Assembly (NCBI RefSeq): GCF_004027225.2 | Contig: NC_044279.2 | Span: 45,718,744-45,782,743, forward strand | Direction: 5' to 3' | Source: Strigops habroptila | Lineage: Eukaryota; Chordata; Aves; Psittaciformes; Psittacidae | Length of the DNA stretch: 64,000 nt | Part shown: positions 7,561 through 38,800 of the stretch, in pieces | Numbering within the stretch: position 1 is the first letter of the stretch | Layout: each line of letters opens with the position of its first letter | The notes under the pieces: model-generated | Seen by the model: the letters and a program-made list of their open reading frames with translations, nothing else | Databases searched by the model: none | Told to the model about the DNA's origin: nothing | Position numbers and translations under genes: made by a program

Positions 7561-7792
7561 CAAAGCACAATTATGCATTAAAAACTTTGCAAAAATCATT
7601 TCACGGAACAAACTTTTGTAACAGATTAAACTTAGTGAATATATTTTTGACCTTTATAAGTGACAATTCAGGGCATACTTTCAAAGTTTCTGAACAGTTT
7701 TGACACATCACGTGTACTTCCTGCATCTTATTATTTGAATTTGCAATATTATCATCTTTGTTTTCTCCATTTGATAATTTCCTTATTTCAAT

Positions 7793-10700
7793 TCAGATTT
7801 TTCTTGTGAATTCAAGTACTTGCTTCATCTCCCTCCTGTCTTCATATCGTTTTCCTTTTCGGTTCACTTCCATGTCTTCTTGGCTCTGTTGTCAAAATAG
7901 AAACACAGAACATCTTGTGCATGATTTCCTACGGTAAAACTATATGCTTTGTCAGAAGCAGTTTAAGTAGTAAACTGTCAACACAGGAGACAAGGTCAAG
8001 TTGTAATCTCTGCTTTCTGCTCAGCTGTGAAATGTATTAACTTTAGGCCCTCACAGCATCCTGTGAATGTTTAGTAGTCCGATGCCTTTCATGAATTCGG
8101 ACCATGGCTGATCAATGTTCAGCTGTCGAACATGCTTCACAAGCAGTCAGAGACAAATCGACCACACTCGTGTAGTGTCTCTGCTGTGCTTTGTCCATCA
8201 CTACAAGCCAAATCCCCTCCTGTAGCTCCTCACGTTAAAGGCAGGTACAACTTTTGCTGTCAGATTAGTAATACCGTACAAAATTAGGACTCATTGGTTT
8301 GTTCTGCAGGCCAAATTTCAGGTCTGCAAACCCACACAACTCTTAAATGCTCTTTCAGACTGCTCAGCGTTGCCTGGAATCTTTCGGGATTTGGTTGGGG
8401 AAGTTGTAACTGTGAAGTTTTGATTTCCAGGTGGGGAAGAGACTGGATGGTCAAAATCTCTATCAAGCAATTACCTGAATGGTTGTTTTAGTCTTGGAGA
8501 ACGTTTTTGCCTGTGGATTTCTTTTCCTCCAAGTTGGTGCATTATAGGATCCTGGAGGGTATTTGTCTGTAGGAAGAGCACAGACATGGTTTCCTCACCT
8601 GAGCTGCACTTTCTGGGAAGACTCTCTTAGCCTGACAGGTGAATCAGGTATTACATTATTACAAATACTACATTAGCTGAAATATCCATGAATGCATTGG
8701 GTGAGTCATGCAGCACCTCTGAAATAGAAGCTAGGATTAAGTACAGACTCTCTCTCTAGTTCTGCCTTCAAAGATTTTTTATATTCTTGCAGGCTTTCCA
8801 TGAGGCTCACAGGACCTTCCAAGCAAAGTGAGTCTACCACGGTCCTCCTGGACTTTAACCAAGTGCATGTTCCTGTACTGAAAATCTTCCCAAAGGCATC
8901 AACTGCTTTTAGAGGAAACTAATCCATAATCCAGTCCTCCTGTTTTATCCCTGCTTGTGAAGACACTTAGATGCAAGGTAGTATCATGTTTAAGTACCCT
9001 TGTTTTCTCTTAGTTCCAGACTAATTGCATTAATTCACATTATTAATTCCATACTAAACCTAAAATTTTCAGTTTACACTCCACACTGCAGTATTACCAT
9101 AGATGTCCGTTTGTGTCCAAAATCTCCTATTTTTGCCAGGCTGATTCTTTCCTTTGGAGGATTTCCAAACAGACCGCTCAGGAGCTGCTGAAAAAAAAAA
9201 TAAGCCAGTAACCAAGATGGTAATGGTTGTCATTATGAGAATAATGCCGATCACCTTGTTTTAGACATGCTTTATCCTTTTTTAACGTGGAAACTTGATA
9301 AGATGTGGTCTTCGTGTTAAGAATGCTCTCTCTGTAATCTCTGCACCAATCTGTCCACATTTTATCAAAGCAAACGTTAAAAGGGAAAAGAAAAACCCAC
9401 AACTATTCGTCCCTGGGATAAAGCAGTGATTTTGGGATTCATTCCCCTTAAACCTTATTGAACTTCTCTGTTGGAAGGAGGCTCCTTTCATTAGAAACGA
9501 AAACAGGGAGGCACCTCGAGATGGAGATTCAACACGATTTAAGAGAGGTGACCAAAACTGTTACGAGGAATTTACTTTTTAATTTAGGATTATTGAAATA
9601 CTTTATCACTAATTTTTATGAAGTGACAGATAAAACAATTTTCCAGAGTTATCATGGACAGGGAAAGGAGAAAGGCACACAAACTCCAAATTATGTACTT
9701 GATTCTGTGAAGCTCTATTAGCAAATTAAAAATAAAGCAAAAGATGTACAACTACAATTACATCCAAACTAGATATCCAAAAAGGAAGACACAAGACTCA
9801 GAATCCCACCTGTCAGCTCCTGTCAAATTTGTGACATAGTACATTCTATCAGGAGGACAGTAGCGTATTTCCAAGATGGAGAAAAGTTGATGGAAAATAT
9901 CATCCTGCATGAATGGCAAGAAGAATGAACCCAGTGCTCTGTCCAACAGAAATGATGTGAAGAAACAATAATAATATAAATCACAGAAATTTACACTGCA
10001 TGTAATTCAAGAAAAGCAGCTCGATTAAGATCCAAGGACATTTTTATTGAAGATGAAAAATATACCTAAATAATGAAAACAATCATAAATTCTTTACATT
10101 TCTGTCTGTGAGTACTGCTGCAACCTACTTGTGAAAGTTATGCTGGATCAAATTTGCTCTTACTCGTCTTCAGGCATAAATTACTTCATATTCACCTGGA
10201 GGATAACAGTCGACCACAGCACAATACAGGCAGGTATATTAGAGGCATTTTAAGAATCCTCCTGTTGAAGCAGGAACCCACCTCTAGGTCCACTGAACTT
10301 TGGTTCTTGGGTGACTGTGACAGTACGGTAGACTACATACGCTGATCTTCGTGGTTCTGAAGAACAGAAGTAAGACTTTCTCCCAGTTTCTCTCTCAAGT
10401 GGAAGAGAAGAAGGAGTTTCACCATCTTTACAGTGACCATTTTTTTGGTAACCGGGTTGTACTTTGGGTTCTGCAGTGTGGCTTTCTAAAAGGGAAAAAA
10501 AACCCCAATACTGTTGATTTGACACTTGAAGACAAGATTAAAAACAAAAAACAATTTATCTGTGGATAACCCAATCCAAATATACAGTTACATCATTTAT
10601 GAGGTAATGTTCAGCCATGAGAAGTCCACGCTCATAAACCTTACCTCCATTTTCAAAGGATCTGAAACGCATTCTGGGAACACTCTCTTTTGGTACTCTC

Positions 10701-13700
10701 CTTCCCAAACTCTCTCCTTCTCTATTTGTGTTGTTCAATTCTGGAGGAATTGTATTGCTGTCACCTGTGAAAGCATCAGAAAGAATGTTTCAGCTGCTGT
10801 TTAAGCACAGGGAAGGGCACTGCCATTCACTTCCTCCCACCTCTGTGAGCTTGTCATGAGTACAGTGCAGTTGCCTTCCAACTCTTGTTTTATATTCTTC
10901 TCTCTCTTTTAGTTGTTCTTTGGATCTTGCCTGGAGTAACTCCAGTAGCCGAGCTATAATACTCATGCCCTCTACGAAAATACCATCATACACAGGCTAA
11001 AGAAGACACTGGCTCCAAAGCAAAGAACCATCTACAAGTTACCTGCTTGTTCTTTAGCTTCTCACTTTTCATGAATGATATTTATGAATCCTACCTGACT
11101 GAATAGACGGTATTTTCAAGGCACCTGTCATAACAGAACTTAAAGCCTCAGAGAACTCAATTAAAGAAATGGTTTGGGGAAATCTTTCTATCCTTTCCTC
11201 AGAATGTATCTAATGATAAACACATACCTTAAACCCAGGTATTTCTTACTATTTCTCTCATCTGTGCTCTAAACATATCTAAACACTTGCCAGGAAAAAC
11301 TCATCACAACTATTATAATCACATGCATTTGAAATGTAGAAATGAGAATAACAAGATTCTGTAAAATTCTGTGGAACAATTTAGGATTGCAAAATTGGTC
11401 AGCCAATACTGCAAGGTGAAAAAAATCTCTGGATGGTTCAAATTCAACTACATAAATATAGATTGTGAAGAAAAATCAAAAGAAAGACCAGCGTTGTGCA
11501 TCTCTGGAAAGTCCACCTTGGGTTAGTAGCCCATTTTCACCCTTTCCATTGACAATTGATGCAGGTAGTCACCATGTGTGTGATACCCTTGCACATATAT
11601 ATGGGAAAAACTAATGAAGTATTTTTATGCTCTTTGCAGTACGCTGTCTTTGACTGTCCCTGAGTTCAAAAAGCGGGGAGGAAGGGCAAACTGTGTCATA
11701 GTTTCTCCTTGTAAGAGTAATTTCAAAAGTGGTACCCAGCATCCGAGGTGATGAAAAGTACTTGCCTTTCTGCAAGTCCCACTGGGTAGCTTCCAAGGGC
11801 AGTAGCTCAGTTTCCTGAGATGGTGACACAGGGTTGGATGACTGGTGTTGGTCAGGCTGCTGAATCCCATAAAACTCTCCTAAACATTATTCAAGAGGGA
11901 AAAATACCCCAAAGTTTACTGTGTGTGCAGCATGGCTGCTCAGAAAAGAGTGACAACTCCTTTCATACTTACCAGATTTATAGCATATTTCCTTTATTGC
12001 TCTTTCCTCTTCGATATCCTCAGCAGTCTTAGGCACCCAGTCAGAAACATCTGTGGGAAATATTTTTAAAAGATTAGGAGATAGCTAGACAAAGACCTTC
12101 AGCAATTCTTAACAATCAACTACCACAACAAATTTCATTTGGTCCTGTTTTTTGGTTTTTATTTCCTTCCCGATTGCAACCTCTGCTTCTGGACAGGGAA
12201 ATCAGTCCTTCAGATTAGATATTTCCAAGGGCAAAGGACTTGCAGTTACAAGCCTTGTAAGAAGCTAACGTGTGTTGATTTAAAATTACTAGTGCAGTAA
12301 TTTACGCAGTGCATGCCCGAGAGTAGGTCGTTGTCTCACTCACCGGGAATGTGCAATTCATCCCTTCCCTATGCATCTCTTATCTCTAAATGAGATTCAC
12401 TGAATAGTTCAACCACATTTAAAAATTTTTAAAACATAAGGAAATGTAAGTATATAAACTTACACATCCTGAAATGAAGAGCTTGGTATGATTTCTCTTT
12501 GCTAGATTTCAGAATAACATTCTGTAAGGAGACTGCCTACAGAGTGCAGCAAATCAATGGAACAAATGATTTAAGTTGAAGTCACACAACTGTCTTTTGT
12601 AAATAAACCTGTGACTTCCATCACCTTCACTGATGAGTGAGTACAGTCCCTGTTCAAAAGCTTGTTTCCAGGAAAAGAAGTACCTCCTAAGCCTGTAATG
12701 TCATCCCTGAATTTTGAGAACTTGTGAAGAGTATTAGATGGCCATCTGAATTGTGGATCATATCATCTGAATTGGGGATCACCTTTTAAAGTCTAGTTAA
12801 TGAGAAAGAGGAATGTGAGTTATACCACTACTGAAATACACAGCTGGGCATTTCACAGGAGTTAGAAAATGTTGCCTCACTCACAGCTGGTGACTACCAG
12901 GTCCGATAATTTGGGGATTTGCTGGAAACTGTTTCAGCAACTTGTCAGCCACTCTTTTCTTCAAATGTAATGCTTATTCTAATGAATCAGTTGATTATGA
13001 AGTACATTGCAAGAGTTGACAAAACCCATTCTACTTGCTTGTATAACAAAAAAGCTGTTTACATTTCTCTTCGTCATCCTCTTCATCAATCTCTTCATCA
13101 TCCTCTTCGTCGTTGAGGTTTATAATCAGTGGAGGGTGAATTGGTATTACAATATTCTCTGGACTTGTGAGTGATCCTTCACACTGGACTGGAGGCAGAA
13201 TTTCTTGGTCACCCTGTGGCAATGGAGCACCTGCAGAAAAGAGCAGTATCACTACTAGAGAGATTTAATCTAGCAAATGCCCAAGGAAAAAACATTCTTG
13301 ATCTATGGATCTCAGGAACCTAAACTACCGTTCGTGACTTCATCTTTCATATCAGTGGTAGCTATGAAGATTTGTAACATGATAGGGAAAATTCCTGCAA
13401 CAACCCTATTCCAATGCCAAAGCAATTCCTTTCCTTGCCTTCAGGATCTTGTTATAGCAGATCATACCTGACTGTTTTGCAATGGTACATTTCTTGTCCT
13501 TAATATGGAAGCACTGGAACAAGAGTAGAAGGATATTTCCTGAACTCTAATGAACAAATTGTTGAGAAAATATTTTTACTCACTGTTAGTAGGTGGCAGA
13601 AAAAGTCCATTGATATGACGAGGTTTGCTGTGACGGAAGGCGCAGCTGATCCTCACACAGCCTGAGGGCTGTGTTTCCCAGAAACAGGCGATGTTCTTCA

Positions 13701-15222
13701 ACTTCTGCTGCAGGAGAAAACAGTTTTCAGATACTGTAAATGTACTAGAAAAAATGGACTTAATGGATTAGTACATGATATAACTACTGTGCACATATGA
13801 CTAAGACTTGGTGGGAGCATATTCTGATATTTTAGAACATTTAACGTTATCTTGAATGAAATCTGCTGTACATGTTCAAATCTTACACAATTACTCTCTT
13901 ACTATTAGAATACATGTGTCTATGGGAAAATGAGAAGTAAGAAACAAACCCCACAAAGATTCCCAACAAGAAGTGAAAACCTAAACATTTGGGGAATTTG
14001 TAATCCTTGCACAGACCTTTCAGACTTGGACTTAAAAATCTGGAAAAAAATCTTTTTTTCCAATTCCCTTTGGAAACATCAGCTTGGCTGCAGAAGGTCA
14101 CTTTTGTTTTCTAGACTAAAACGTGTTTGAAGGGACTTGCTCATTTCCACCTCTATTTCTGTATTTCTAAATCCACTGAACAGATGCAAACGACTCCCCC
14201 ATTTCCATAACGGGTGCACAGTATCACAGCCAAGAGGTTTTCCATAGTAACAGAATCTGCACCCGAGGAAAATTAATTTCTGGGTAGTCACACTGGTTTC
14301 CCATACCCCGGTGGCTGCCATAAAGGTGACTCTACTCTTTTAAAAGATTTTGGTTTTAATTAGTTGGGGAGATGATGCAGTAGTCCATGTATAACAGTGT
14401 TACAGTGACAAATGTAAACTCAGGTTTCTATCCTGGATACAAACCACATCCCAGCTCAGAGCTGTATATGCCAGGTGACCTGTTGTTTCTCAGTGAATTT
14501 TGAAAGGAAAACAAAGCCACACTTGAAAATATTAGCGTACTTGAAGGTTGGTTTCACCCAGTTCCAGATATTTAGAAAGAAAAGAGGCCATGTCTAAACT
14601 GTAGTCAGGAGAACTGGCCGATACCCTGAGAATCACTGGGGTCTGGAGCCAAAACCTATTTCCTAGGCATTAGCACTAGTTAATCATCCCCCAATCATGA
14701 CATGGGGGCAACAATCAAGATCCCTTATAGCCACCCCTGATTTTCACTCAGTGGAATGTAAATTTTTTTTTTGAGGACAATCCCATTTTGAAGAGCTTTG
14801 TTTTAAATAACAGATTTTACAGGAATTCAGGAAGTTGCTATAAGAAGAAATTACAAACATGGTGTATTTGTTCAGAATCAGTACAATGTTGACTCAGTAG
14901 GAAACTGATGAGTGGTCTGTAGGTGCAATTTGTAACTTCTGTGTTCTTTGATTGTCTGTGCCCAGTTGAAAGGAGAAACTGTCTGTAGTTTAGACCATCT
15001 TTAGCTCTTCTAGCCACTTCTGAAAATGATGTATTCAATTTACGGGCGCTGCCGTGACACAGGTAGAGTGCCGTATCAACTTGAAAGTTTACATAATGAA
15101 CCCCCTTCCAACATGACGATATCAAGAAAATCAAGGATACGAACCACTCTAAAATCAAAAGTATTTACCTGTGAGTAAGGGGAATAAAATTGGAAATAGC
15201 ATTCTGTCTGATTTGTGTCCAT
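7793..15222 (-). CDS. C12orf50: C12orf50-like CCCH zinc-finger protein, copy 1 (11 exons)
   Basis: Coding exons, 5' to 3' on the minus strand: 15169-15222, 14151-14279, 13584-13707, 13063-13230, 11973-12050, 11766-11879, 10645-10764, 10282-10485, 9098-9187, 8475-8566, 7793-7885. The joined frame is 421 codons plus stop, close to human C12orf50 (about 414), and all phases agree. Exon 3 carries the diagnostic CCCH finger (C-x8-C-x4-C-x3-H, starting [10 protein letters not shown]) followed by [13 protein letters not shown]. Exon 4 is acidic (DEEDDEE). Exon 5 has EERAIKEICYKSG, and exon 10 reads [16 protein letters not shown], like the human C-terminal part. Exons 1 and 2 resemble the first two fingers of ZC3H11A but have lost most zinc ligands. 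The donor after exon 6 is GC rather than GT, and the exon 2 donor (GTGGAA) is weak. The cellular role is unknown; RNA binding is only inferred from the finger. The gene lies head to head with the orphan RLIG1 exon 1. Confidence 0.8.
13584..13707 (-). other. C12orf50: C12orf50 copy 1 exon 3: the intact CCCH zinc finger
   Basis: This exon encodes the only complete zinc-binding set in the protein: four ligands spaced C-x8-C-x4-C-x3-H. It starts after a CAG acceptor at 13708-13710 and ends at a GTGAGT donor. The matching exon in copy 3 (32588-32711) appears identical. Copy 2 has lost it. Confidence 0.85.
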
Positions 15223-16680
15223 TTTCACCTCCTTCACTCTCTGGTGCACGAAAGAGATGCTACCTTCTACAGGCTTGCTGAGTTGACTAAAGCAACTGCT
15301 AGCCAGTAGAGAATGTTCAACAAATGTTCCATATTCTGTGTTCCATAGAATGTTTTGTGGTTGCCAACGGCTCCTCCAGCTGGTGACATCAGCATGATGG
15401 TTCCATGTGGCCAGTGCAGCTTGAACATCTTCCTTTATCTCATTTCATCAAAGTATGGAAAATCAGATCATCTCAAAGAGTCTCCCATTCTCCCATCCTA
15501 TGTTTATTTCATGTAAAATGGAGCAAACCCATCTGGTGATGCTTAAATAATACCCAACTTCTTCCTGTAGAACCTGTGGTCTTGGAAACAAATCTTTGAG
15601 AGCACAAAGATGAACCTTGTTCTTTGACTGTTTTCTAAGCCAAGTCCTTGTGCCCCACGTGTTTCCTACTCCACTTCTTTCTGTGGATTGCTGCTTCCCA
15701 CTAGTAGGGTGCTAGGTGTTAACTGCTTATTTAGCGGGGGTTCATTGTTTTTTCTTGCTTCCATGATGTCCAGTGCCACAGCTGCAGCAGAAAGAGCAGC
15801 GGACACTTGTGTCCCTAATGGACACCTCTGATCCCATTCAGGTCCTAGGCTGCCTCTGAATAAAAAATATCTGGGGGTGAGAAGCTGTAAATTTGACATC
15901 AGTGACTTGGAGATGAATGCTTCTGTGCAATGTTGGAACAAAACCTGGAAACGTAGTAGTAAAACAGAAAACGAAACACGGAAAAGAAAAGGAGCCACGA
16001 CCTTAGGAGAGAAGAATGCCATTACTTTGAGAGTAATAAGGATAGAGATGAAGCCAAAGAGGAGGGAGGGGGGATACAAGGCAGACTGCAAGAAAGAGGA
16101 TTAGTGGTTCATAGCACCATCAAAAGTGCATGCGACCGGCAGTTCGTTGGGAGAAAAGAAAAACAACGCAAAACTGAACAAATCAGAAAAACTCCACAAG
16201 AACCCACCCCGACAGTGCGTGGTGACAAGACTGCCTGACAACTCAGCAGAGCACAGCGGTGCTGTACGTCATTGGTGTGCCAGGGCAGGACTGACTGGGG
16301 CACACAGGCAAAGGAGAATTCAGCAAAAGCAGATGAGGGCCATGAGTAAGGAGCTGTCAGTTGGCAGGAGCAGCCCTAGGAAGGATGGGTCAGCTCTGCC
16401 AGGGGCTATCCAAACAGGCGCTCTGTAGCTGTGCAGCTGGGCCTACGTGAGGCACAGCAGAGCTGGTCAGAAGAGCTGATTCTGCACTGGGTTTGTGTGG
16501 CAAGAATTTGGCAGCTGGGGCTGCAGGGCTGGCTTCTGGGAGAAGCTGCTCAAGCTTCCCCCGTGTCTGACAGGGCCAATGCCAGCGGGGAAGAAGGGAG
16601 TGGTGGGGGGAAGGCGTTTGGACATTTGGCTTTTATTTCTCATGCCCCTGCTTGGCTGCGATTGGCAATAAACTGAGAGA
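15223..16680. other. Upstream region of C12orf50 copy 1
   Basis: No coding sequence is recognised between the C12orf50 start codon and the CpG island. It is matched in unit 3 (about 34064-35330) with patchy similarity, and the part from about 16200 onward is almost the same in both units. It presumably holds the 5' untranslated region or promoter of C12orf50 copy 1. Minus-strand open frames such as 15666-16091 show no recognisable family. Confidence 0.5.
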
Positions 16681-16689
16681 AAAGGATGA

Positions 16690-17204
16690 GTGATCGCTGC
16701 ACGTGTCCTTGTGTCGACCCAGGACCCTTTGGTTGTACATTCTTCCCTCTTCGCAGCTGAGGAGGGCAGTGATAGAGCAGCTTTGGTGGGCACCTGGCGT
16801 CCAGGCGGGGTCAACCCGGCAGAGACTCAAAGGTTGTACGCCGAGGCAGAGAGCCTGGGTAAGGAAGGAGGCGGCTGTCCTAAGGGAGAGGTCACCACAG
16901 CCTGGCGCCTCAGGCCGGCCTCAGCCTCACCCTGGCGGCCGCCCCGGCCCGGCGGGAGCCGCCGCTGTGGAGAGCGGAGCTGCCCGGGGCCTGAGGCCGG
17001 GCGGGGCGGCAGAGAGCGGCAGAGCCACCGCGAGGCTGCGGGCCGCTGGAGACAGGCGGCCACGCTCCGCCCCACCGCGCTCAGGGCTGTGCCGCGGCTC
17101 CTGGCGGGCGGGAGCGGTAACGGACTCCATTTCCCGTGGCGCCCCGCGGCGCAGGCGCATTGTGGGCTCGGAGCGGGGACGCCGGCGGGAGCGGGGCCGG
17201 GGCC
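16690..17204. promoter_or_regulatory. CpG-rich promoter of RLIG1, duplicated copy (unit 1)
   Basis: Base composition becomes very GC- and CpG-rich from about 16.8 to 17.45 kb. An NRF1-like element GCGCAGGCGCA lies at 17149-17159, about 45 bases before the ATG. The whole stretch is nearly identical to 35340-35854 in front of the functional RLIG1 gene. A working housekeeping-type, possibly bidirectional promoter is likely but inferred. Long open frames on both strands here come from the GC content and are not genes. Confidence 0.7.
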
Positions 17205-17294
17205 ATGAGTCGGCGGGGCTCGGTGCAGCGGAAGGTGCCGTGTCTGTTCGTGACCGAGGTGAAGGAGGAGCCGTCGGCCAAGCGGGAGCGGCAG
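17205..17294 (+). pseudogene. RLIG1: Orphan RLIG1 exon 1 (duplicated)
   Basis: This is a copy of the first coding exon of RLIG1: 30 codons from ATG ([10 protein letters not shown]...) to a CAG|GTGGCC donor at 17295. The encoded residues are the same as in the functional exon at 35855-35944. Exons 2-7 do not follow, because the unit ends about 20 bases before where exon 2 would start. It is therefore a gene fragment, unless it is used as a distant alternative first exon spliced to 37712; phase would allow that. Confidence 0.8.
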
Positions 17295-18500
17295 GTGGCC
17301 GGGGCGGCACGGGCCCGGGCGGGCGTCAGGCGGTGGAGGCCCCAGTCCCCGCGGCGGGTCCGGGTCCGGTGCCGGGCCGAGGGGAGTGAGACAGCCGAGT
17401 GGTGAGGGGTTCGGCTGCAGGTCTGTGGCGAAACGCGTGCAGGTGCTCACGGAAGTGTTGTGTTTGGCTTTTCTAAGCGTCGGGAACAGTCACGGCAAGG
17501 AGCAAGGCCACTCCAACATAGTGGTACTGGGAAAAGAGCAAGAGGGCCAACCATTATTCTGACTTCCCGAGATGGAAAACGAAGCATCCGGACAGCTTCG
17601 GAAAAGAAGTAAGGGGGGGACGTTTGGCGTGTTGGTGTTTGTCTTCCCAATGAGTGATGGAGCCCGGCTTTCCTGGAGGTGGCTGAACACCTGCCTAACG
17701 ATGGGAAGTCGTGAGTGATGTCCTTGTTTTTTGCTTTGCTTGTGTGCTCAGCTTTTGCCTTCCCTATTAAACTGTCTATGTGAAGCCAGGAGTTTTTTCA
17801 CTGTTGCCATTCCGATTCTCTCTCCCATGTCACCGGGGGGGAGTGAGTGAGCAAACTGCTGTGCGAGGCTCAGTTGCCAGCTGGGGTTAAACCATGGCAC
17901 TCCCTCAGTTGTTCCTTCATACAGAACCCGACAAGGGATTAGATCTGAAACTGGAACATGCATCTTCATAGATTCTATATTTCATGCTTATGGCTACAAA
18001 CCCAGTTCCTAAACCAGAAAGTATTTAACAGCAAGATGCTTTTGCTATCCTTCACTACACAGGTCTGGGTATTGCTTGGTGTAAAATGGTGCTATTGGCT
18101 TTCAGCTCCAAACTGAGAGCTTGGAGCAGCTCATCAGGGTGAATTTCTGTTGCCTTTGTCATACAGGAAGGCCCATCTCCAGATATTGCAGTGCTGGACT
18201 GGAACCTTTCTAGTGTATATGCACTACTTGAAGTGTGTAAAAAGGCAAAATTATCTCTAAATGCTAATCAATAATGGGAAAGGCGGAGAGGGTTTGCAAA
18301 GAGATTGTCTTTCTTCTTTTGTCTTAAAGCATTTTCCAAGCTGTCATCTCTGGAGGAAACACTGGTGTACTTCGATGGGATTAGAAATCAGGAACAGGAT
18401 GGGTAGGGCTAGATTTATAGAGTCCAGTTGTCAGGAGAAAGAATCCACATGAGAAAAAGGTAGTAGCATAGCCATGATGGAGGATTAAAATTTAATCACT
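17295..18500. other. Shortened RLIG1 intron 1 copy in unit 1
   Basis: Sequence matching RLIG1 intron 1 continues here in pieces. 17400-17515 matches 36100-36225, and 18080-18490 matches 37290-37692. An LTR-like segment (about 17660-17900) lies between. No coding exon is recognised. Short open frames in the 18.2 kb part are shared with the real intron and look like chance. Confidence 0.7.
17660..17900 (+). mobile_element. Partial LTR of an avian endogenous retrovirus-like element (unit 1)
   Basis: The segment has the familiar avian LTR layout: a G-rich stretch, an ATTAAAC poly(A)-type signal, a C-rich part (GATTCTCTCTCCCATGTCACC), then GGGGGGAGTGAGTGAG and a 3' end reading GGTTAAACCATGGCAC. 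No internal retroviral genes are present, so it is a solo or truncated LTR. It shares its 3' flank with the longer LTR in unit 2. Family assignment is from memory. Confidence 0.5.
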
Positions 18501-28600: not shown

Positions 28601-31600
28601 GATGTAACAAATGTGGATGGGTATATTTATACATCAGCACATCATTACATTCATCCCTCTCTTTTGGACAGAGAAAAGAATTCCTGCTTTGAAGGTGATT
28701 AATTACTGTTCATGAACGCTCTGTCTGACTAATTGCAGAGCTTTATAAAGCTTTACATTTCTGTCTGTGAGTCCTGCCGCAGCCTACTTGTGAAAGTTAT
28801 GCTGGATCAAATTTGCTCTTAACTGTCTTCAGCCAGAAATCACTTCATATTCCCGACCACAGCACAATACAGGCCGGTATATTAGAGGCATTTTAAGAAT
28901 CCTCCTGTTGAAGCAGGAACCCACCTCTAGGTCCACTGAACTTTGGTTCTTGGGTGACTGTGACAGTACGGTAGACTACATATGCCGATCTTTGAGGTTC
29001 CGAAGAATAGAAATAAGTCTTTCTTCCAGGTTCTCTCCCATTAGGAAGAGGAGAATTGTCTTCACCATCCTTACAGTGACCCTTTGTTTGGTAACTGGGT
29101 TGTACTTTGGGTTCTGCAGTGTGGCTTTCTAAAAGGGAAAAAACAAACAATACTGTTGTGCTATTACTGAAAATTTGACATACTGCAGAGGACTGGAGGC
29201 TGGAAGACAAGATTAAGAAAATGTTCATTGTGGATAGCCCAATCCAAATATACACAGTTATGTCATTTATGAGGTAATGTTCAGCCATGAGAAGTCCACG
29301 ATCATAAACCTTACCTCCATTTTCAAAGGATCTGAAACCCATTCTGGGAATACTCTCTTTTGGTACTCTCCTTCCCAAACTCTCTCCTTCTCTATTTGTG
29401 GTGTTCAATTCTGGAGGAATTGTATTGCTGTCACCTGTGAAAGCATCAGAATGTTTCAGCTGCTGTTTAAGCACAGGGAAGGGCACTGCCATTCACTTCC
29501 TCCCACCTCTGTGAGCTTGTCATAAGTTCAGTGCAGTTGCCTTCCAACTCTCGTTTTATATTCTTCTCTCTCTTTTGGTTGTTCTTTGGATCTTGCCTGG
29601 AGTAACTCCAGTAGCCGAGCTATAATACTCATGCCCTCTACGAAAATACCATCATACACAGGCTAAAGAAGACACTGGCTCCGAAGCAAAGAACCATCTA
29701 CAAGTTACCTGCTTGTTCTTTAGCTTCTCACTTTTCATGAATGATATTTATGAATCCTACCTGGCTGAATTAATGGTATTTTCAAGGCACCTGTCATAAC
29801 AGAACTTAAAGCCTCAGAGAACTTGGTTGAAGAAATGCTTTGGGGAAACATCTCTATCCTTTTCTTGGAATGTATCTAATGATGTATCACTACATCCCAT
29901 CATCTAACCACCCAAGAGATCCAGCAAAGAGCACGAAGCACCTCTGGGAAAGGGACTTATCTCACCTTTCTTTGGCACTCTCTTATGGTGCAATAAATAG
30001 CTCTCTAAGAGTGCCTCTTGTTGTAAAAGTCTCTCTCCTTTTACAACAGAGAGCCTGGACAAGAACGTTAAACTATGTTACTAACCAAAGGATGGCTGAT
30101 AGCCTGTTTCCACCTTTTACCTCTACAGTCGATGCACGTAGTCACCCCATATGTGACACTCACAATATATATTCATATATATATATACAGGAAATATGTG
30201 GTCCTTGATTGTCCCTGAGTTCAGAGTCCAAAAAGCGGGGAGGAAGGGCAAACTGTGTCACAGTTTCTCCTTGTAAGAGTAATTTCAAAAGTGGTACCCA
30301 GCGTCCGAGGTGATGAAAAGTACTTGCCTTTCTGCAAGTCCCACTGGGTAGCTTCCAAGGGCAGTAGCTCAGTTTCCTGAGATGGTGACACAGGGTTGGA
30401 TGACTGGTGTTGGTCAGGCTGCTGAATCCCATAAAACTCTCCTAAACATTATTCAAGAGGGAAAAATACCCCAAAGTTTACTGTGTGTGCAGCATGGCTG
30501 CTCAGAAAAGAGTGACAACTCCTTTCATACTTACCAGATTTATGGCACATTTCCTTTATTGCTCTTTCCTCTTCGATATCCTCAGCAGTCTTAGGTACCC
30601 AGTCAGAAACATCTGTGGGAAATATTTTTAAAAGATTAGGAGATAGCTAGACAAAGACCTTCAGCAATTCTTAACAATCAACTACCACAACAAATTTCAT
30701 TTGGTCCTGTTTTTTGGTTTTTAGTTTTCTTTTTTATTTCCTTCCCGGTTGCAACCTCTGCTTCTGGACAGGGAAATCATTCCTTCAGATTAGGTATTTC
30801 CAAGGGCAAAGGACTTGCAGTTACAAGCCTTGTAAGAAGATAACGTGTTGATTTCAAGTTATTAGTACTGTAATTCGCGCAGTGTGTGCCTGAGAGTAGG
30901 TCGTTTTCTCACTTTCACTCACCGGGAATGTGCAAGTCGTCCCTTCCCTATGGATCTCTTACCTCTGAATGAGGGCACCAAATTGGTCAGGCATGATTTG
31001 CCCTTAATGAAGCAATGTTGGGCTTGTTTTTCATGTACCTTAGCATCGTTTCTAGGAGAACCTGCTTCAAGATCCTGCCATGCACAGAGGTGAGACTGAC
31101 TGGTCTGCAGTTTCCCACATTAATATATAAATATATAAACATACACATCCAGATAAACTGGATAAATTAAGGAAGAGCTTGGTATGGATTCTTTTTGCTA
31201 GATTTCAGAATAACATTCTGTAAGGAGACTGCCTACAGAGTGCAGCAAATCAATGGAACAAATGATTTAAGTTGAAGTCACACAACTGTCTTTTGTAAAT
31301 AAACCTGTGACTTCCATCACCTTCACTGATGAGTGAGTACAGTCCCTGTTCAAAAGCTTGTTTCCAGGAAAAGAAGTACCTCCTAAGCCTGTAATGTCAT
31401 CCCTGAATTTTGAGAACTTGTGAAGAGTATTAGATGGCCATCTGAATTGTGGATCATATCATCTGAATTGGGGATCACCTTTTAAAGTCTAGTTAATGAG
31501 AAAGAGGAATGTGAGTTATACCACTACTGAAATACACAGCTGGGCATTTCACAGGAGTTAGAAAATGTTGCCTCACTCACAGCTGGTGACTACCAGGTCC

Positions 31601-34063
31601 GATAATCTGGGGATTTGCTGGAAACTATTTCAGCAACTTGTCAGCCACTCTTTTCTTCAAATGTAATGCTTATTCTAATGAATCAGTTGATTATGAAGTA
31701 CATTGCAAGAGTTGACAAAACCCATTCTACTTGCTTATAAAGGATAGAAAAAACTTTACAGATCTCTTCATTGTCCTTTATATTGTCCTCTTCATCATCC
31801 TCTTTGTCACTGATGTTTATAATCAGTGGAGGGTGAATTGGTAGTACAATATTCTCTGGACTTGTGAGTGATCCTTGATACTGGGCTGGAGACAGAATCC
31901 CTTCTTGGTCACCCTGTGGCAGTGGGGCATCTGCAGAAAAGAGCATTAGATTTCTTTTGTTAGGAGGGACCTGGAATGTGAAATCCATGTTGACATCAGC
32001 AGGTCTAGTTTTGAAACCATTATCATATGGAAGTAATCAAAAAATGGAGACATTGTGCCTTTTAGGAAGAATCTTCTGCAGAGGTTGGCAAAAGAGCATC
32101 TTCCAACTACAGAAAGTCTTAAAAACCAGATTAAATATGACAATATAGGGATAGGTGTGATTAGTAATACCTGGTCTGAAATTAATAAATGAGTTCAGGA
32201 TCCCAGTGATGTAAAAGATATGCCAGGCTACCTTTTCCTTTCCTGGGGGAATTTCAGGAACACAAAGGGTTTGCTTCTAAATAGAAGTCTTCCTGCATTT
32301 GTCTCATGACACCTGTCTCCAGGTCTGTAGTTAAGTTAAGGCCCATGAATAACTCTTTTTTTAGCTCTCACTCCTGGTTCTCCTGCATTTCTGATATCTA
32401 AAGATTCCTAACACAACAGCAACAAAAATTCCTGCAACAACCCTATTCAAATGCCAATACAATTCTTTTCCTTGCCTTCCACTTGCAGGGATAGCAGATC
32501 GTACCCCACTGATTTGCCATGGCACATTTCTTGTCTTGTCTTGACTAACTCTAATGAACAAATTATTGAGAAAATATTTTTACTCACTGTTAGTAGGTGG
32601 CAGAAAAAGTCCATTGATATGACGAGGTTTGCTGTGACGGAAGGCGCAGCTGATCCTCACACAGCCTGAGGGCTGTGTTTCCCAGAAACAGGCGATGTTC
32701 TTCAACTTCTGCTGCAGGAGAAAACAGTTTTCAGATACTGTGGTAAAAATGGACTTAATGGATTAGTACATGATATAACTACTGTGCACATATGACTTTT
32801 TGTGCAAGCGCATTGTGATATTTTAGAACATTTAGTTATCTTGAATGAAATCTGCTGTACATGTTCAAATCTTACACAATTACTCTCTTACTATTAGAAT
32901 ACATGTGTCTATGGGAAAATGAGAAGTAAGAAACAAACCCCACAAAGATTCCCAACAAGAAGTGAAAACCTAAACATTTGGGGAATTTGTAATCCTTGCA
33001 CAGACCTTTCAGACTTGGGACTTAAAAATCTGGAAAAAAATCTTTTTTTCCAATTCCCTTTGGAAACATCAGCTTGGCTGCAGAAGGTCACTTTTGTTTT
33101 CAGACTAAAACGTGTTTGAAGGGAGTTGCTCATTTCCACCTCTATTTCTGTATTTCTAAATCCACTGAACAGATGCAAACGACTCCCCCATTTCCATAAC
33201 GGGTGCACAGTATCACAGCCAAGAGGTTTTCCATAGTAACAGAATCTGCACCCGAGGAAAATTAATTTCTGGGTAGTCACACTGGTTTCCCATACCCCGG
33301 TGGCTGCCATAAAGGTGACTCTACTCTTTTAAAAGATTTTGGTTTTAATTAGTTGGGGAGATGATGCAGTAGTCCATGTATAACAGTGTTACAGTGACAA
33401 ATGTAAACTCAGGTTTCTATCCTGGATACAAACCACATCCCAGCTCAGAGCTGTATATGCCAGGTGACCTGTTGTTTCTCAGTGAGTTTCTGTGTGAGGT
33501 TTTTAAAGGAAAACAAAGCCACCCTTGGTATTATTTAAAGGTCAGTTTCTCCCAGTTCCAGACATTCAGAGCTGGGTGTAGGAGCAGCTTTTTTTCACCC
33601 AGTGGAACGTAAATATTCTTTTTTGTGGACAAACCCATTTTTAAGGGCTTTGTTTTAAATAACAGATTTACAGGAATTCAGGTAGTCACTAGAGGCAGAA
33701 ATGATAAACATGGCCATTATATAATCAATATAATGTTTACTCAATAAGCAAGCGATGAGTGGTCTATAGGCGTGATTTCTAACTTCTGTGGTTTTTGATT
33801 GAACCCAGCTGAAGGGAGAAATTGTCTGTAGTTTAGATCTTTAGCTCTTCTCGCCACTTCTGAAAATGATGTATTTGATTTACAGGCGCTGCCATGAAGC
33901 AGACAAAGTGCCATATCAGCTTGAAAGTTTACATAATGACCCTCCCTTTCAACATGGAGGTATCAAGAAAATCAAGGATACAAACCACTCTAAAATCTAA
34001 AGTATTTACCTGTGTGTAGGGGGAATGAAAACGGAAATTGAGTTCATTCCCTGCTGCGCCCAT
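25700..34063 (-). CDS. C12orf50: C12orf50-like CCCH zinc-finger protein, copy 3 (11 exons)
   Basis: Coding exons 5' to 3': 34010-34063, 33140-33268, 32588-32711, 31760-31930, 30535-30612, 30328-30441, 29315-29434, 28925-29128, 26622-26711, 26071-26162, 25700-25792. The joined frame is 422 codons plus stop, with every phase consistent. It is the likely orthologue of human C12orf50, because it lies head to head with the complete RLIG1 gene. Exon 3 holds the intact C-x8-C-x4-C-x3-H finger. Exon 10 reads [13 protein letters not shown], closer to human than copy 1. The exon 6 donor is GC (AAAG|GCAAGT). The start exon has diverged from copy 1: the CYFQF stretch there reads LNFRF here, which removes the first zinc-ligand cysteine. 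Intron 8 contains a CR1 insertion that leaves the splice sites untouched. Molecular function is not established. Confidence 0.82.
26780..27897 (-). mobile_element. CR1 LINE fragment in intron 8 of C12orf50 copy 3
   Basis: On the minus strand this encodes part of a CR1 reverse transcriptase: [29 protein letters not shown], and the C-terminal part with [19 protein letters not shown] and [19 protein letters not shown]. The frame is interrupted. Its 3' end is marked by the short ATCATAGAATC-type repeats at 26780-26810 and the familiar sequence GGTTAGGGTTAGAAAGGACC. The element is 5'-truncated, lacking the endonuclease part, and absent from units 1 and 2. A 46-base inverted-repeat hairpin interrupts it at 27114-27159. 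Confidence 0.85.
27114..27159. repeat. Perfect 18-bp inverted repeat inside the CR1
   Basis: The left arm 27114-27131 and right arm 27142-27159 are exact reverse complements, separated by a 10-base loop. The arms (TGGTTTAAGCCCAGCCAG) resemble the end of the LTR type seen at 17.9 and 25.0 kb (GTTAAACCATG). It looks like a foreign insertion in the CR1 3' region. Confidence 0.85.
30962..31118 (-). mobile_element. Short CR1 fragment in intron 4 of C12orf50 copy 3
   Basis: The stretch matches part of the CR1 reverse-transcriptase region also found at 27.67-27.83 kb (plus-strand wording such as ACCAAATTGGTCAGGCATGA and GGTGAGACTGACTGGTCTG). It is absent at the corresponding place in units 1 and 2. 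It is too short to encode anything. Confidence 0.65.
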
Positions 34064-35339
34064 CTTCACCTCTTCCACCTGTCCTCTCTCAGTACTCTCT
34101 GAACATACATGAAAACGTTAAAGCTTTCACATTCTGGCAAACTGTAATCCTACCCTAAAATCAGTAGCTTTGTTTCAAAAACTGGACCTTCAGAACATTA
34201 GTTCTGCTGGGTTTTTTTGAAACAAAACTCCAACTAACAAAGAAGAAGGAAGGATGTGGTACCTTCTCCGGGCATCCTGAGCCGACGAAGGCAGTTGCTG
34301 TCCAGTATAGAATGTTCCGTTTCCACAGTTGCCAACGGCTGCTCCAGCTGGTTCCATGATGGTTCCATGTGGCCAGTCCAGCTTGAACATCTTCCTTTAT
34401 CTCGTTGCTTCAGAGTAAAGTATGGAAAATGGGACTTTCTCCAAGAATCTCCCATTCCGGTGTTTCTTTACCATAAAATGTAGTAAGGTGCTAGCTGTTA
34501 ACTGCTTAGATTGCTGGAGTACCTTGCTTTTTCTTGCTTCCATGATGCCAGTGCCACAGCTACAGCAGAAAGAGCAGCGGACACTTGGGTCCCTTACAAA
34601 AAACTCTGTTCCCATTCAGGTCCTAGGCTCTCTCTGAATAAAAAATATCTAGGGGGGGGGAATTAAGTTTTCATCCTGGAAATCAGTTAAGGCATGCTAT
34701 TATCCCGAGTTTATGGGGTCAAATCCACAACCGTGAGCGACATCAGTGACTTGGAAATGAACACTTATGAGCATTCTTGAATAAAACCCTGGAATTTAGG
34801 GAAAAGAAACAAACAAAAAATCACAAAGTAAGAAAAAACCCCCCATCAAGAACCCACCCCAACAGTGCGTGGTGACAAGACTGCCTGACAACTCAGCAGA
34901 GCATAGCAGTGCTGTACGTCATTGGTGTGCCAGGGCAGGACTGACTGGGGCACACAGGCAAAGGAGAATTCAGCAAAAGCAGATGAGGGCCATGAGTAAG
35001 GAGCTGTCAGTTGGCAGGAGCAGCCCTAGGAAGGATGGGTCAGCTCTGCCAGGGGCTATCCAAACAGGCGCTCTCTGTAGCTGTACAGCTGGGCCTACGA
35101 GAGGCACAGCAGAGCTGGCCAGAAGAGCTGATTCTGCACTGGGTTTGTGTGGCAAGAATTTGGCAGCTGGGGCTGCAGGGCTGGCTTCTGGGAGAAGCTG
35201 CTCAAGCTTCCCCCGTGTCTGACAGGGCCAATGCCAGCGGGGAAGAAGGGAGTGGTGGGGGGAAGGCATTTGGACATTTGGCTTTTATTTCTCATGCCCC
35301 TGCTTGGCTGCGATTGGCAATAAACAGAGAAAAGGATGA
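34064..35339. other. Upstream region of C12orf50 copy 3
   Basis: No coding sequence is recognised. The right half is nearly identical to the corresponding part of unit 1 (16.2-16.69 kb). It lies between the C12orf50 start codon and the RLIG1 CpG promoter and probably contains the C12orf50 transcription start and 5' untranslated region. Confidence 0.5.
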
Positions 35340-35854
35340 GTGATCGCTGCACGTGTCCTTGTGTCGACCCAGGACCCTTTGGTTGTACGTTCTCCCCTCT
35401 TCGCAGCTGAGGAGGGCAGTGATAGAGCAGCTTTGGTGGGCACCTGGCGTCCAGGCGGGGTCAACCCGGCAGAGACTCAAGGGTTGTACGCCGAGGCAGA
35501 GAGCCTGGATAAGGAAGGAGGCGGCTGTCCTAAGGGAGAGGTCACCACAGCCTGGCGCCTCAGGCCGGCCTCAGCCTCACCCTGGCGGCCGCCCCGGCCC
35601 GGCGGGAGCCGCCGCTGTGGAGAGCGGAGCTGCCCGGGGCCTGAGGCTGGGCGGGGCGGCAGAGAGCGGCAGAGCCACCGCGAGGCTGCGGGCCGCTGGA
35701 GACAGGCGGCCACGCTCCGCCCCACCGCGCTCAGGGCTGCGCCGCGGCTCCTGGCGGGCGGGAGCGGTAACGGACTCCATTTCCCGTGGCGCCCCGCGGC
35801 GCAGGCGCATTGTGGGCTCGGAGCGGGGACGCCGGCGGGAGCGGGGCCGGGGCC
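35340..35854. promoter_or_regulatory. CpG-island promoter of RLIG1
   Basis: The sequence is strongly GC- and CpG-rich from about 35.5 kb into exon 1 and on to about 36.1 kb. An NRF1-like GCGCAGGCGCA lies at 35799-35809, 46 bases before the ATG. A TTTCCCG-type element lies just upstream. No TATA box is evident. Because C12orf50 starts on the other strand about 1.8 kb away, a bidirectional role is possible but not shown. Confidence 0.7.
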
Positions 35855-38800
35855 ATGAGTCGGCGGGGCTCGGTGCAGCGGAAGGTGCCGTGTCTGTTCG
35901 TGACCGAGGTGAAGGAGGAGCCGTCGGCCAAGCGGGAGCGGCAGGTGGCCGGGGCGGCACGGGCCTGGGCGTGGGGCGGGCGGTTGGGGCGGCACGGGCC
36001 CGGGCGGGCGTCAGGCGGTGGAGGCCCCAGTCCCCGCGGCGGGTCCGGGTCCGGGTCCGAGTCCGGTGCCGGGCCGAGGGGAGTGAGACAGCCGAGTGGT
36101 GAGGGGTTCGGCTGCAGGTCTGTGGCGAAATGGACGGTGGCGCGTGCAGGTGCTCACGGAAGTGTTATGTTTGGTTTTTCTAAGCGTCGGGAACAGTCAC
36201 GGCAAGGAACAAGGCCACTCCAACACGAACAGACTGGGAGTTGTGTAAACTATCGTGCCGTTCCCCTCTGTGAGCTTTGTGGGCAATAAATACGTTTTTC
36301 TTTGTTTTTTTCGTTTTGGTTGTGATCCAGGCAGTAACAGAGTTATGAGAGAAGAATTCCTTTGAGGCTGTAAGACGTCGAATATTTAGTAAGGGGAAAG
36401 TAATGGATCCCAATCAACGTTATGATTTCCCGAGATGGAAATGGCAGTGTCAGGACAGACTGGGGTGTGATTCACCTCTCTAGCCATATACCTCCAACCT
36501 GTCTTCCCTGATTTTTGTAGCAGCACCTACTGCTCTCAGCTGCATGGTGAATTTGTATCCATGCGGGTGACTTTCGCCCCTTAGTATTTGACTTGTGGAT
36601 GGAAGAACTGAAATGATTGCCAAAACATCAGTAACTAAGTTGTTCAACTCTGAGTAGCAACACCATCATGATAATGGCCATGTAAGCGTCTCTCGCTATA
36701 CATTTGTTCCTTCATACAGAAGAACCCAACAGGAAATTAGATGTGGAACTGACACATGGTGTGTTTTCTCTTTTTTTTCAAACTGTAGGCAAGAATACCA
36801 GAGGGGGTTCTGTTTGCTAGGAAAGAAGGGGGGTGGTGGTCAGAAAACCAATGGGAATTTTTTCTTCCTACCCTGAAAATGTTTCTTTTCATGAAATATT
36901 CATAGATGGTTACAAATCTGGTTCCTAAAATAGAATACAGCCATTTTATCCAGCGAAAGCCTGTAGAAGGTTCTCATTTTATGAATTCAGAGTTCTGTTT
37001 TGGGACATGCAACTTAAAGGTGTCTGGAGAAAGAGGAGGGAGGGGTGATGATTATGCGGGAACATTTGAATCCAAGCACAGCTAATGACCTATTTACAGT
37101 GACACTGTTACAGAACCCCACCTAGAAATGTGGACTAGTTGTGGCTGGCTGTTTGTTTCAGTGACTGAATCACTTGCGTCTTTGCTCTTTTGAAGTGGAA
37201 GACTGTTTAGTTGGCATCTCTGATACCAGGTATTTAACACCAGGATGCTTTTGCTACCTTGTGTGGCACCGGCCTGTGTATTTCATGGCATAAAATGGTG
37301 CTATTGGCTTTCAGCTCCAAACTGAGAGCTCGGAGCAGCTCATCAGGATGAATTTCTGTTGCCTTTGTCATACAGGAAGGCCCATCTCCAGATATTGCGG
37401 TGCTGGACTGGAACCTTTCTAGTGTATATGCACTACTTGAAGTGTGTAAAAAGGCAAAATTATCTTTAAATGCTAATCAAGAGTGGAAAAGGCAGAGAGA
37501 GTTTGCAAAGGGATTGTCTTTCTTTTGTCTCAGAGCATTTTCCAAGCTGTCATGTCTTGAAGAAACATTGATGTACTTCGATGGGATTAGAAATCAGGAA
37601 TAGGATGGGTAGGGCTGGGCTTACAGATTCCAGTTATTGAGAGCAGGAATCCTCATGAGAAGGCGGCAGTAATCTAGCCACGAGGGTTTAAAATACCTGT
37701 CTTTTTTTCAGCCCTTTAAAGTTTTGGCAACTGAAACTATAACTGCAAAGGCGATAGAGGCAGATATATACAGTGCAGTTCCTACTGAAAAGGTGGATGG
37801 AACCTGCTGTTATGTAACTACTTACAAAGGTAATGTGACAGATCCATGTGCAGTTTTCTCATGCTGAGTAGAAACCTTGTTTTATGTAGTTTTTGCTTTT
37901 GTTGTGAGATTTATTGGATTACAGCTTTTGCAAATGTGCCTGGCATTGAAGATCTTGACCATGTGGTAATAGTTATTGTGACCATAGGAGGTGTTTATAA
38001 GGTTGTTATAGATTGTACTCTGTCAAATACATGCACTATGATTTAAGTGAACATGCTAATCAAGGAACTTGTCCGGGTTTAATATTTCCTGCTAGTAAGT
38101 CTTCCTTGCCCACTAGAACTTGTATAAAGGGTGTCCAGTTTCCCTGGGGAGGCTTAAAAGAAGTATGGAAGCTGGGAGGAAATGAGAAGACTGGTTCATT
38201 GCATCACTGGGGTTCTTGCCTTTACCTTCTTGTAGGGAAACTTAGTATTACACTAAGCAAGATTCTACAAATAGGTTTTTAGATTCAGGTAGTCTAATTA
38301 ATGTATGAATTTATGTAATGTCTTTGGCTGTAAAATTTCTCTTGTTGCAAATGAGGATTCATATCTTGTCTTTTATGTAGTTGATTTCAGCAGTCTGCAG
38401 ATATGGTCACCTCAGTAAACTGCTGGTTTTCTTTCTCTGGAAACTCTAGGGCAACCCTATCTATGGGCTAGGCTGGATCGTAAACCTAACAAACAAGCTG
38501 AGAAAAAGTTTAAACGATTCTTGTATTCATTGGAAGATTGCAAAGGTTAGTGAAGATTTCTTACTTCCCCCCCCCAATGTAAGTTAATCTAGTTTGAAAA
38601 ACAGCTCTCATCTGATGCAGGAAATGTCAGTGATCATACTCGAATTTTTTTTATGTCACTCTTCACTTCAAGAAAACTTTAAACAGACTAATTTAAACTT
38701 CCCCAATAGAGTCGATTGGGGTAGGAGATACCAAAAGCAGTGCAGTAGGTAAGATAGGGGCTGGCATGGTATTGCCAGTGGGTGGCAATGCCTGTGGGAA

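What the first reader, a model, noticed from the sequence alone, without database searches (positions are those of the whole stretch)
7690..37692. Recent tandem triplication of C12orf50 together with the RLIG1 promoter and first exon
Three head-to-tail units share the same exon order and strand. Terminal exons of C12orf50 start at 7793, 18601 and 25700, and RLIG1 exon 1 copies start at 17205 and 35855. Two C12orf50 copies are intact over 11 exons and one is broken. In mammals, as I know the locus, C12orf50 is single copy. Two intact copies of a little-known zinc-finger gene offer a natural test of dosage or divergence of function. Assembly duplication is an alternative, but the private insertions (CR1 in unit 3), LTRs and deletions (unit 2) argue that the units are real.
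Basis: partly seen in the sequence, partly recalled or inferred. Interest (0 to 1): 0.75.

Follow-up and report, generated by a model that had tools for sequence, protein, structure and literature searches.

The report
Old gene triplet kept alike by copying
In a parrot genome (the kakapo), a little-known zinc-finger gene sits in three side-by-side copies that are old rather than recent, and DNA copying between the neighbours has overwritten some stretches while sparing most of one exon, so each copy is a patchwork of old and new sequence.

Summary
The three head-to-tail units are real: U1 7712-18480, U2 18515-~25320, U3 25628-37686. U1 and U3 each hold an intact C12orf50-like gene (378 and 379 aa, 10 coding exons) and an identical RLIG1 exon 1. 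U2 lacks the promoter stretch, start exon, zinc-finger exon and a usable exon 6.

'Recent' is wrong. Identity between units is a step function: tracts at 98.3-99.4%, mostly intronic (longest mismatch-free run 1,123 sites), alternate with an 18-20% divergent background. Annotated proteins of other parrots carry the same exon-7 paralog types, and AU tests reject a kakapo-private triplication (p 0.0009 and 0.0045). The array predates the kakapo/other-parrot split; what is recent is, most likely, interlocus gene conversion.

Exon 6 groups by species and neighbouring exon 7 by paralog in 3 of 3 testable parrots (kakapo, macaw, swift parrot), on short alignments. Many other Neoaves list several C12orf50 proteins; a chicken gene list shows one.

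RLIG1 exon 2 starts 25 bp beyond the last unit, so U1's exon 1 is an orphan.

The kind (concerted evolution of a tandem array) is known. I found no description of this locus in the searches made. Function, and why exon 7 is spared, remain inference.

The parts
7712..18480 (-). Unit 1 (U1): intact C12orf50 copy plus CpG-island promoter stretch and orphan RLIG1 exon 1
18515..25320 (-). Unit 2 (U2): broken C12orf50 copy; no promoter stretch, start exon, zinc-finger exon or usable exon 6
   Evidence: right end approximate (last clear homology 25317)
25628..37686 (-). Unit 3 (U3): intact C12orf50 copy plus the promoter stretch and exon 1 of the complete RLIG1 gene
15169..15222 (-). U1 start exon (MDTNQTECYFQFYSPYSQ)
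   Evidence: same type as the start exon of both Melopsittacus models read
13584..13707 (-). U1 CCCH zinc-finger exon
   Evidence: PF15663
13063..13230 (-). U1 exon e3 (acidic stretch)
11973..12050 (-). U1 exon e4
11766..11879 (-). U1 exon e5 (GC donor, same in U2 and U3)
10645..10764 (-). U1 exon e6 (in a U1-U3 tract; groups by species)
10282..10485 (-). U1 exon e7 (5' 146 of 204 bp outside any U1-U3 tract, 3' 58 bp inside tract 10211-10339; groups by paralog)
9098..9187 (-). U1 exon e9
8475..8566 (-). U1 exon e11
7793..7885 (-). U1 terminal exon e12 with TGA
23529..23699 (-). U2 exon e3 (open)
22435..22512 (-). U2 exon e4
22228..22341 (-). U2 exon e5
21083..21286 (-). U2 exon e7 (own type, shared with a Neopsephotus model)
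19906..19995 (-). U2 exon e9
19283..19374 (-). U2 exon e11
18601..18693 (-). U2 terminal exon e12
34010..34063 (-). U3 start exon ([18 protein letters not shown])
   Evidence: same type in Ara, Guaruba, Amazona and Neopsephotus models
32588..32711 (-). U3 CCCH zinc-finger exon
31760..31930 (-). U3 exon e3
30535..30612 (-). U3 exon e4
30328..30441 (-). U3 exon e5
29315..29434 (-). U3 exon e6
28925..29128 (-). U3 exon e7 (own type)
26622..26711 (-). U3 exon e9
26071..26162 (-). U3 exon e11
25700..25792 (-). U3 terminal exon e12
7856..9159 (.). High-identity tract U1-U2 (partner 18664-19967): 3 mismatches in 1,304 sites
11603..12991 (.). High-identity tract U1-U2 (partner 22064-23453): 6 mismatches in 1,388 sites; overlaps U1-U3 tracts 11655-12264 and 12498-13040
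10593..11097 (.). High-identity tract U1-U3 (partner 29263-29763): 9 mismatches in 501 sites; covers e6, stops about 110 bp short of e7
13541..14496 (.). High-identity tracts U1-U3 (13541-13802 and 13825-14496; partner 32542-33485): 4 mismatches in 922 sites; cover the zinc-finger exon
16212..17459 (.). High-identity tract U1-U3 (partner 34862-36166): 12 mismatches in 1,246 sites; GC 0.67, CpG o/e 0.70; covers the promoter stretch and RLIG1 exon 1
17205..17294 (+). Orphan RLIG1 exon 1 in U1 (CDS part, GT donor follows)
35855..35944 (+). RLIG1 exon 1 in U3 (CDS part), presumed start of the complete gene
37712..37829 (+). RLIG1 exon 2 (one copy in the window, holds EKVDGTCC), 25 bp beyond the end of U3 homology
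26796..27939 (-).

Best explanation
A roughly 11-12 kb stretch holding all of C12orf50, its CpG-island intergenic promoter stretch, and exon 1 plus intron 1 of the divergent neighbour RLIG1 was tandemly triplicated before the split between kakapo and the other sampled parrots (supported by exon-7 trees and AU tests). Since then the copies have drifted to 18-20% background divergence (shown). Patches of about 0.1-1.4 kb, including the promoter stretch with RLIG1 exon 1, the zinc-finger exon and exons 4-6, have since become nearly identical (shown), by interlocus gene conversion (inferred). U1 and U3 keep open reading frames; U2 lost its promoter stretch, start, zinc finger and exon 6 and survives as a decayed copy that shares tracts with its neighbours (shown; exchange inferred). 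The start exon, much of exon 3 and the 5' 70% of exon 7 keep old paralog identity. For exon 7 this holds in 3 of 3 testable parrots, so two somewhat different proteins persist beside shared parts. That selection guards the difference is only a possibility; dN/dS does not show it.
For: Step-function identity. Two-state HMM: U1-U2 3,536 sites at 0.65% mismatch against 2,426 at 20.0%; U1-U3 4,711 at 1.15% against 3,583 at 18.0%; U2-U3 1,776 at 1.7% against 3,132 at 17.8%. Longest mismatch-free run, observed / maximum of 1,000 permutations: 1,123/132, 413/150, 342/116. U1-U2 and U1-U3 tracts are 88% and 87% non-exonic; in non-exonic sites alone the contrast is 0.6% against 21% (U1-U2) and 1.0% against 18% (U1-U3), and it holds under 4 of 4 HMM settings for these two pairs. 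Exon 7: U2 groups with Neopsephotus at 100/98, U2 and U3 types with other parrots at 96/80 (50 rows); U1-type against U3-type 100/98 (11 rows). AU rejects the kakapo copies as one clade, p=0.0045 and 0.00085. Exon 6: kakapo U1+U3 together 100/98, a U1-type clade rejected p=0.0004; exon 7: same-species pairing rejected in kakapo 0.0009, Ara (with Guaruba) 0.0018, Lathamus 5e-5. Both intact ORFs match PF15663 and PF17732. One C12orf50 in a chicken gene list (PMC9498448, passages).
Against: The exon trees rest on 39-69 columns of predicted proteins, some of them fused models (Neopsephotus P0002, Lathamus P0003). The U1-type exon-7 clade is weak in the 50-row tree (81/19) and unresolved in the 26-row tree. 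For kakapo, raw exon-7 counts do not separate the readings: 12 of 68 residues differ between its U1 and U3, 9-14 between it and other parrots of the same type; only the tree does. Within-species exon-6 support in Ara/Guaruba (76/85) and Lathamus (72/76) is modest. The 3' 58 bp of kakapo exon 7 do lie in a tract. Guaruba pairs a U3-type start exon and exon 7 with an exon 3 nearer U1/U2. I saw no DNA of other parrots; their linkage rests on shared contig lengths. dN/dS of U1-U3 in the less converted exons is 0.67 (bootstrap 0.39-1.18): constraint not shown. The kakapo tracts come from one assembly. The exon groups were named after I had seen the sequences.
Confidence: 0.85

Rival explanations
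1. Recent, kakapo-private triplication; divergent patches are simply fast-evolving or badly aligned.
For: Long tracts at 98-100% identity.
Against: Background of 18-20% mismatch with many indels in all three pairs; exon-7 paralog types shared with other parrots and AU rejection; between U1 and U3, synonymous divergence is about 0.2 in exons 3 and 7 against 0 in exons 5, 6 and the zinc-finger exon.
Confidence: 0.04
2. Old array, but the near-identical tracts are an assembly artefact: consensus polishing or gap filling overwrote one paralog with reads from another.
For: One assembly only; short-read polishing can homogenise paralogs (general knowledge, recalled).
Against: Tracts still hold scattered differences (0.65-1.7%); no N in the window; exon-6 grouping by species is also seen, with modest support, in Ara and Lathamus proteins from other genomes.
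Confidence: 0.08
3. No gene conversion: serial partial duplications or unequal crossovers made the patchwork.
For: Unequal crossover also homogenises tandem arrays; U2 is truncated.
Against: 6 (U1-U2), 10 (U1-U3) and 5 (U2-U3) separate high tracts lie within conserved order, and the one genome search that answered found no further copy; single crossovers would change copy number or homogenise whole flanks. Mixed histories cannot be excluded.
Confidence: 0.06
4. Strong purifying selection rather than exchange keeps the similar segments alike.
For: Some tracts contain exons.
Against: U1-U2 and U1-U3 tracts are 87-88% non-exonic and in non-exonic sites reach 0.6-1.0% mismatch, while coding exons 3, 7, 9 and 12 diverge.
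Confidence: 0.02

Closest known systems
C12orf50 (zf-CCCH_3 PF15663 + DUF5571 PF17732) of birds and mammals
   Same: Exon content, both Pfam domains, and divergent transcription beside RLIG1; listed next to C12orf29 in a chicken gene list (PMC9498448, passages)
Other multi-protein C12orf50 sets in Neoaves (crane, wood stork, pigeons, macaw)
   Same: Several proteins listed per species on one contig length, e.g. 7 of 8 crane clusters and 7 of 7 wood-stork clusters
   Different: Crane copies are nearly alike in the exons I read; parrots keep three distinguishable exon-7 types
Concerted evolution of tandem paralogs by interlocus gene conversion, with conversion-spared segments (recalled examples: RHD/RHCE, primate opsins; bird loricrin appeared in a search listing, PMC6447390)
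   Same: Near-identical tracts with sharp ends, species-wise grouping of a converted exon, an older signal elsewhere
   Different: Locus and lineage; here the split between converted and spared falls between two neighbouring exons in three parrots
RLIG1 (C12orf29), RNA ligase, PF17720
   Same: One complete-looking gene from 35855 to about 44429, Pfam 487 bits
   Different: A second, orphan exon 1 about 18.6 kb upstream of the first exon, nearly identical to it

Membership tests
C12orf50 | CCCH zinc-finger domain PF15663 above curated cut-off | tested here: met
   U1 47.4 and U3 48.2 bits, cut-off 31; exon absent from U2
C12orf50 | DUF5571 PF17732 | tested here: met
   U1 204.8 and U3 198.9 bits, cut-off 25
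C12orf50 | Head-to-head with RLIG1 | tested here: met
C12orf50 | Expressed protein, germline role | not testable with these tools
   No expression data; PMC8875138 (two passages) lists the human gene among genes changed in NOA, which I read as non-obstructive azoospermia
Concerted evolution by interlocus gene conversion | Near-identical tracts with sharp ends inside divergent paralogs, noncoding included | tested here: met
Concerted evolution by interlocus gene conversion | Converted segments group by species, spared segments by paralog | tested here: met
   3 of 3 testable parrots; strong for kakapo, modest exon-6 support in the other two; 39 and 67 columns
Concerted evolution by interlocus gene conversion | Conversion events seen in populations or pedigrees | not testable with these tools
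   No reads or resequencing data
Recent segmental duplication | Uniformly low divergence between units | tested here: not met
   18-20% mismatch in 41%, 43% and 64% of scored sites for U1-U2, U1-U3 and U2-U3
RLIG1 | PF17720 match | tested here: met
   487.4 bits (seven exon pieces joined, at least one internal stretch left out)

The most novel reading that the evidence does not exclude
Most of exon 7, with the start exon and the acidic exon 3, is a conversion-resistant island: selection keeps two functionally distinct C12orf50 proteins in parrots by removing conversions that cross it, while conversion freely refreshes the zinc finger, exons 4-6 and the shared promoter. The array would then be a natural dissection of which parts of this uncharacterised protein must differ and which must match.
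Probability: 0.25. Interest if true: 0.62.

Novelty: new member of a known kind. Interest (0 to 1): 0.45.

Why it matters
It shows how misleading raw similarity is for dating tandem copies: an array that looks recent is older than the split between kakapo and the other sampled parrots. It supplies two intact, partly distinct copies of a gene of unknown function in parrots, with a boundary between overwritten and spared exons that recurs in three species and can be tested in any parrot genome. It also warns that gene models, orthology calls and read mapping for C12orf50 and RLIG1 exon 1 in birds can be confounded: NCBI's kakapo protein is a U1 model with a different start, and the Neopsephotus protein joins exons of two units.

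Tried and rejected
Two open stretches in U1 (9350-9255, 8905-8717) looked like in-frame exons and first suggested that U3 had lost coding sequence. They score under half of self in 148 of 148 fetched proteins, while true exon e9 passes that mark in 33, so I dropped them (used).

Reading U2 as an intact third gene was rejected: no start exon, zinc-finger exon or usable exon 6, and no promoter stretch. Its exons 3 and 7 hold no stop, but in a substitution-only simulation that happened in 10-45% of runs without selection, so it is no evidence of function.

dN/dS as proof of function was inconclusive. GC-biased conversion: tracts in U1 7712-16100 are slightly GC-richer (0.408 against 0.379), suggestive only. 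tRNA scan: 0. Pfam on three CEP290-like coiled-coil stretches: 0 of 3 matched. A search for parrot divergence dates gave 3 papers, none opened, so ages rest on a recalled rate. A protein search of the whole genome was asked and never answered, so degenerate copies elsewhere are not excluded. First script versions failed: error; time limit; searches are the corrected runs.
Full report
WHAT IS THERE. The window contains no N. A self-comparison finds three head-to-tail units: U1 7712-18480, U2 18515 to about 25320, U3 25628-37686. The NCBI kakapo (Strigops habroptila) C12orf50 protein equals U1 residue for residue over the zinc-finger, e3-e7, e9, e11 and e12 exons, and its N-terminus, which differs from the start exon I use, is encoded at 14541-14591 on the minus strand. 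I therefore take the window to be kakapo. The one whole-genome search that answered places it in a 1.149 Gb, 89-contig assembly; its 801-bp query gave 7 matches, 7 of 7 in the three units. Nineteen earlier or later requests to that tool did not complete.

GENE MODELS. On the minus strand U1 has 10 coding exons and a 378-residue open frame, U3 10 exons and 379 residues, with consistent phases and GT-AG splice sites except a GC donor after e5. Both match zf-CCCH_3 and DUF5571 above curated cut-offs. U2 keeps e3, e4, e5, e7, e9, e11 and e12 but has no start exon, no zinc-finger exon, a degenerate e6 and no promoter stretch. RLIG1 runs on the plus strand from 35855 to about 44429. Its exon 1 is present in U1 and U3 with identical coding, inside a CpG island in both (GC 0.67, CpG o/e 0.70-0.71 against 0.19 in a control stretch). 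Homology between U1 and U3 ends at about 37686, 25 bp before RLIG1 exon 2 at 37712, so U1's exon 1 is an orphan. Whether it is used is unknown.

AGE. Identity between units is not uniform. A two-state model on reliably aligned sites (5,962 of 6,584 for U1-U2, 8,294 of 9,293 for U1-U3, 4,908 of 6,109 for U2-U3; the rest dropped for low local identity or long gaps) gives high-identity tracts at 0.65%, 1.15% and 1.7% mismatch and a background at 20.0%, 18.0% and 17.8% (JC 0.233, 0.205, 0.203). For U1-U2 and U1-U3 the contrast holds under 4 of 4 parameter settings, though tract number varies (5-7 and 11-17 by that script's count), and in non-exonic sites alone. In 50 shuffles of site order the model still calls on average 1,075 (U1-U2) and 1,556 (U1-U3) sites high (maxima 1,609 and 2,319), far below 3,536 and 4,711. 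Longest mismatch-free runs are 1,123, 413 and 342 sites against permutation maxima of 132, 150 and 116 (1,000 each). With a recalled avian neutral rate near 2e-9 per site and year, the background would mean some 50 million years and the clean U1-U2 run under about 1 million. Both are rough.

OTHER PARROTS. The protein search reported 200 hits, the best 120 shown; a second with U2's exons gave 119 from a capped candidate list. Exon-7 peptides from 42 bird proteins chosen out of the first list, five second copies within them, and the three units (50 rows) were put in a tree. Parrots form one group (100/99). U2 joins a Neopsephotus exon (100/98); U2 and U3 types with other parrots' U3-type exons form a group (96/80); the U1-type group is weak (81/19). 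With a macaw and a Pezoporus sequence added and fewer outgroups (26 rows) the U1-type group is unresolved, but the kakapo copies as one clade are rejected again, and so is each pair of them that was tested (two pairs, p 0.017 and 0.032; three pairs, p 0.0005 to 0.011). So the three units appear to predate the split of kakapo from the other sampled parrots.

EXON CONFLICT. For the three parrots with U1-type and U3-type proteins spanning e6 and e7 (kakapo, Ara, Lathamus), exon 6 differs by 2-3 of 39 residues between paralogs within a species and by 4-10 between species within a type. Exon 7 differs by 12-21 of 66-68 between paralogs within a species and by 7-14 between species within a type; in kakapo the within-species count (12) overlaps the between-species range, and only the tree separates them. 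In an 11-row tree exon 7 splits by paralog at 100/98 and same-species pairing is rejected in all three (p 0.0009, 0.0018, 0.00005). Exon 6 does the opposite, with strong support for kakapo (100/98) and modest support for Ara with Guaruba (76/85) and Lathamus (72/76); a U1-type clade is rejected (p 0.0004). In kakapo DNA the U1-U3 tract that covers e6 ends at 10593, about 110 bp short of e7; the 3' 58 bp of e7 fall in another tract (10211-10339), so the spared part is its 5' 146 bp. Melopsittacus has two listed full-length copies, both U1-type in e7, and cannot test this.

MECHANISM. Shown: tandem array, mosaic identity, shared paralog types. Supported on short alignments: species-wise exon 6. 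Inferred: interlocus gene conversion as the agent; U2 as an occasional partner; selection or local divergence as the reason exon 7 is spared. dN/dS of 0.67 (0.39-1.18) between U1 and U3 does not prove constraint. Guaruba shows exon 3 switching type relative to its start exon and exon 7, so exon 3 is not always spared.

OTHER BIRDS AND LITERATURE. C12orf50 clusters listed: crane 8 (7 on one contig length), wood stork 7 (7 on one), rock dove 8 (isoform labels included), macaw 4 (4 on one), among others. Clusters are not gene counts. A chicken GWAS paper lists one C12orf50 next to C12orf29 (PMC9498448, passages). Searches for C12orf50 (16 papers), kakapo with gene conversion (5), gene conversion with tandem duplicates, birds and concerted evolution (6), C12orf50 with testis (4), DUF5571 (0), and parrot with tandem and gene conversion (63, 10 shown) gave no title or opening abstract that describes this array. 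A 117-vertebrate segmental-duplication survey includes kakapo (PMC13431229, passages); its supplements were not read and may list the units. PMC8875138 (two passages) places human C12orf50 in a list of genes changed in NOA, which fits a germline role but proves none for birds.

VERDICT. The locus is a clear case, ordinary in kind, of concerted evolution in a tandem array, with one repeated feature, the mostly spared exon 7, that deserves a genomic test.

Noticed in passing
window 48900-62643, minus strand: Coiled-coil ORFs (e.g. 48900-49190, 61662-61931, 62377-62643) that look like CEP290, expected next to RLIG1; the name is recalled, and Pfam matched 0 of the 3 pieces tested.
   Followed up: partly
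proteins P0022, P0029, P0044, P0026 (Rissa, Larus): Both gulls list a C12orf50 protein on a ~94.79 Mb contig, identical between the two species in the exon 3 and 7 stretches compared, besides different copies on 219-224 Mb contigs: an older second locus, possibly sex-linked (guess).
   Followed up: partly
protein P0002 (Neopsephotus): The annotated protein runs from U3-type exons into U2-type exons, in the order of transcription: either a fused gene model or a real read-through transcript.
   Followed up: partly
protein P0125 (Ara ararauna): A macaw model without zinc finger starting at exon 3, like kakapo U2; the zinc-finger loss may be old.
   Followed up: no
window 35938-36019: 35-bp GC-rich tandem repeat in U3 beside RLIG1 exon 1, where U3 is longer than the otherwise near-identical U1 stretch.
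   Followed up: no
window 15169-15222 and 34010-34063: Start exons of U1 and U3 have the highest dN of the ten exons (0.44, dS 0.29, 18 codons); each type is shared with other parrots' models.
   Followed up: partly
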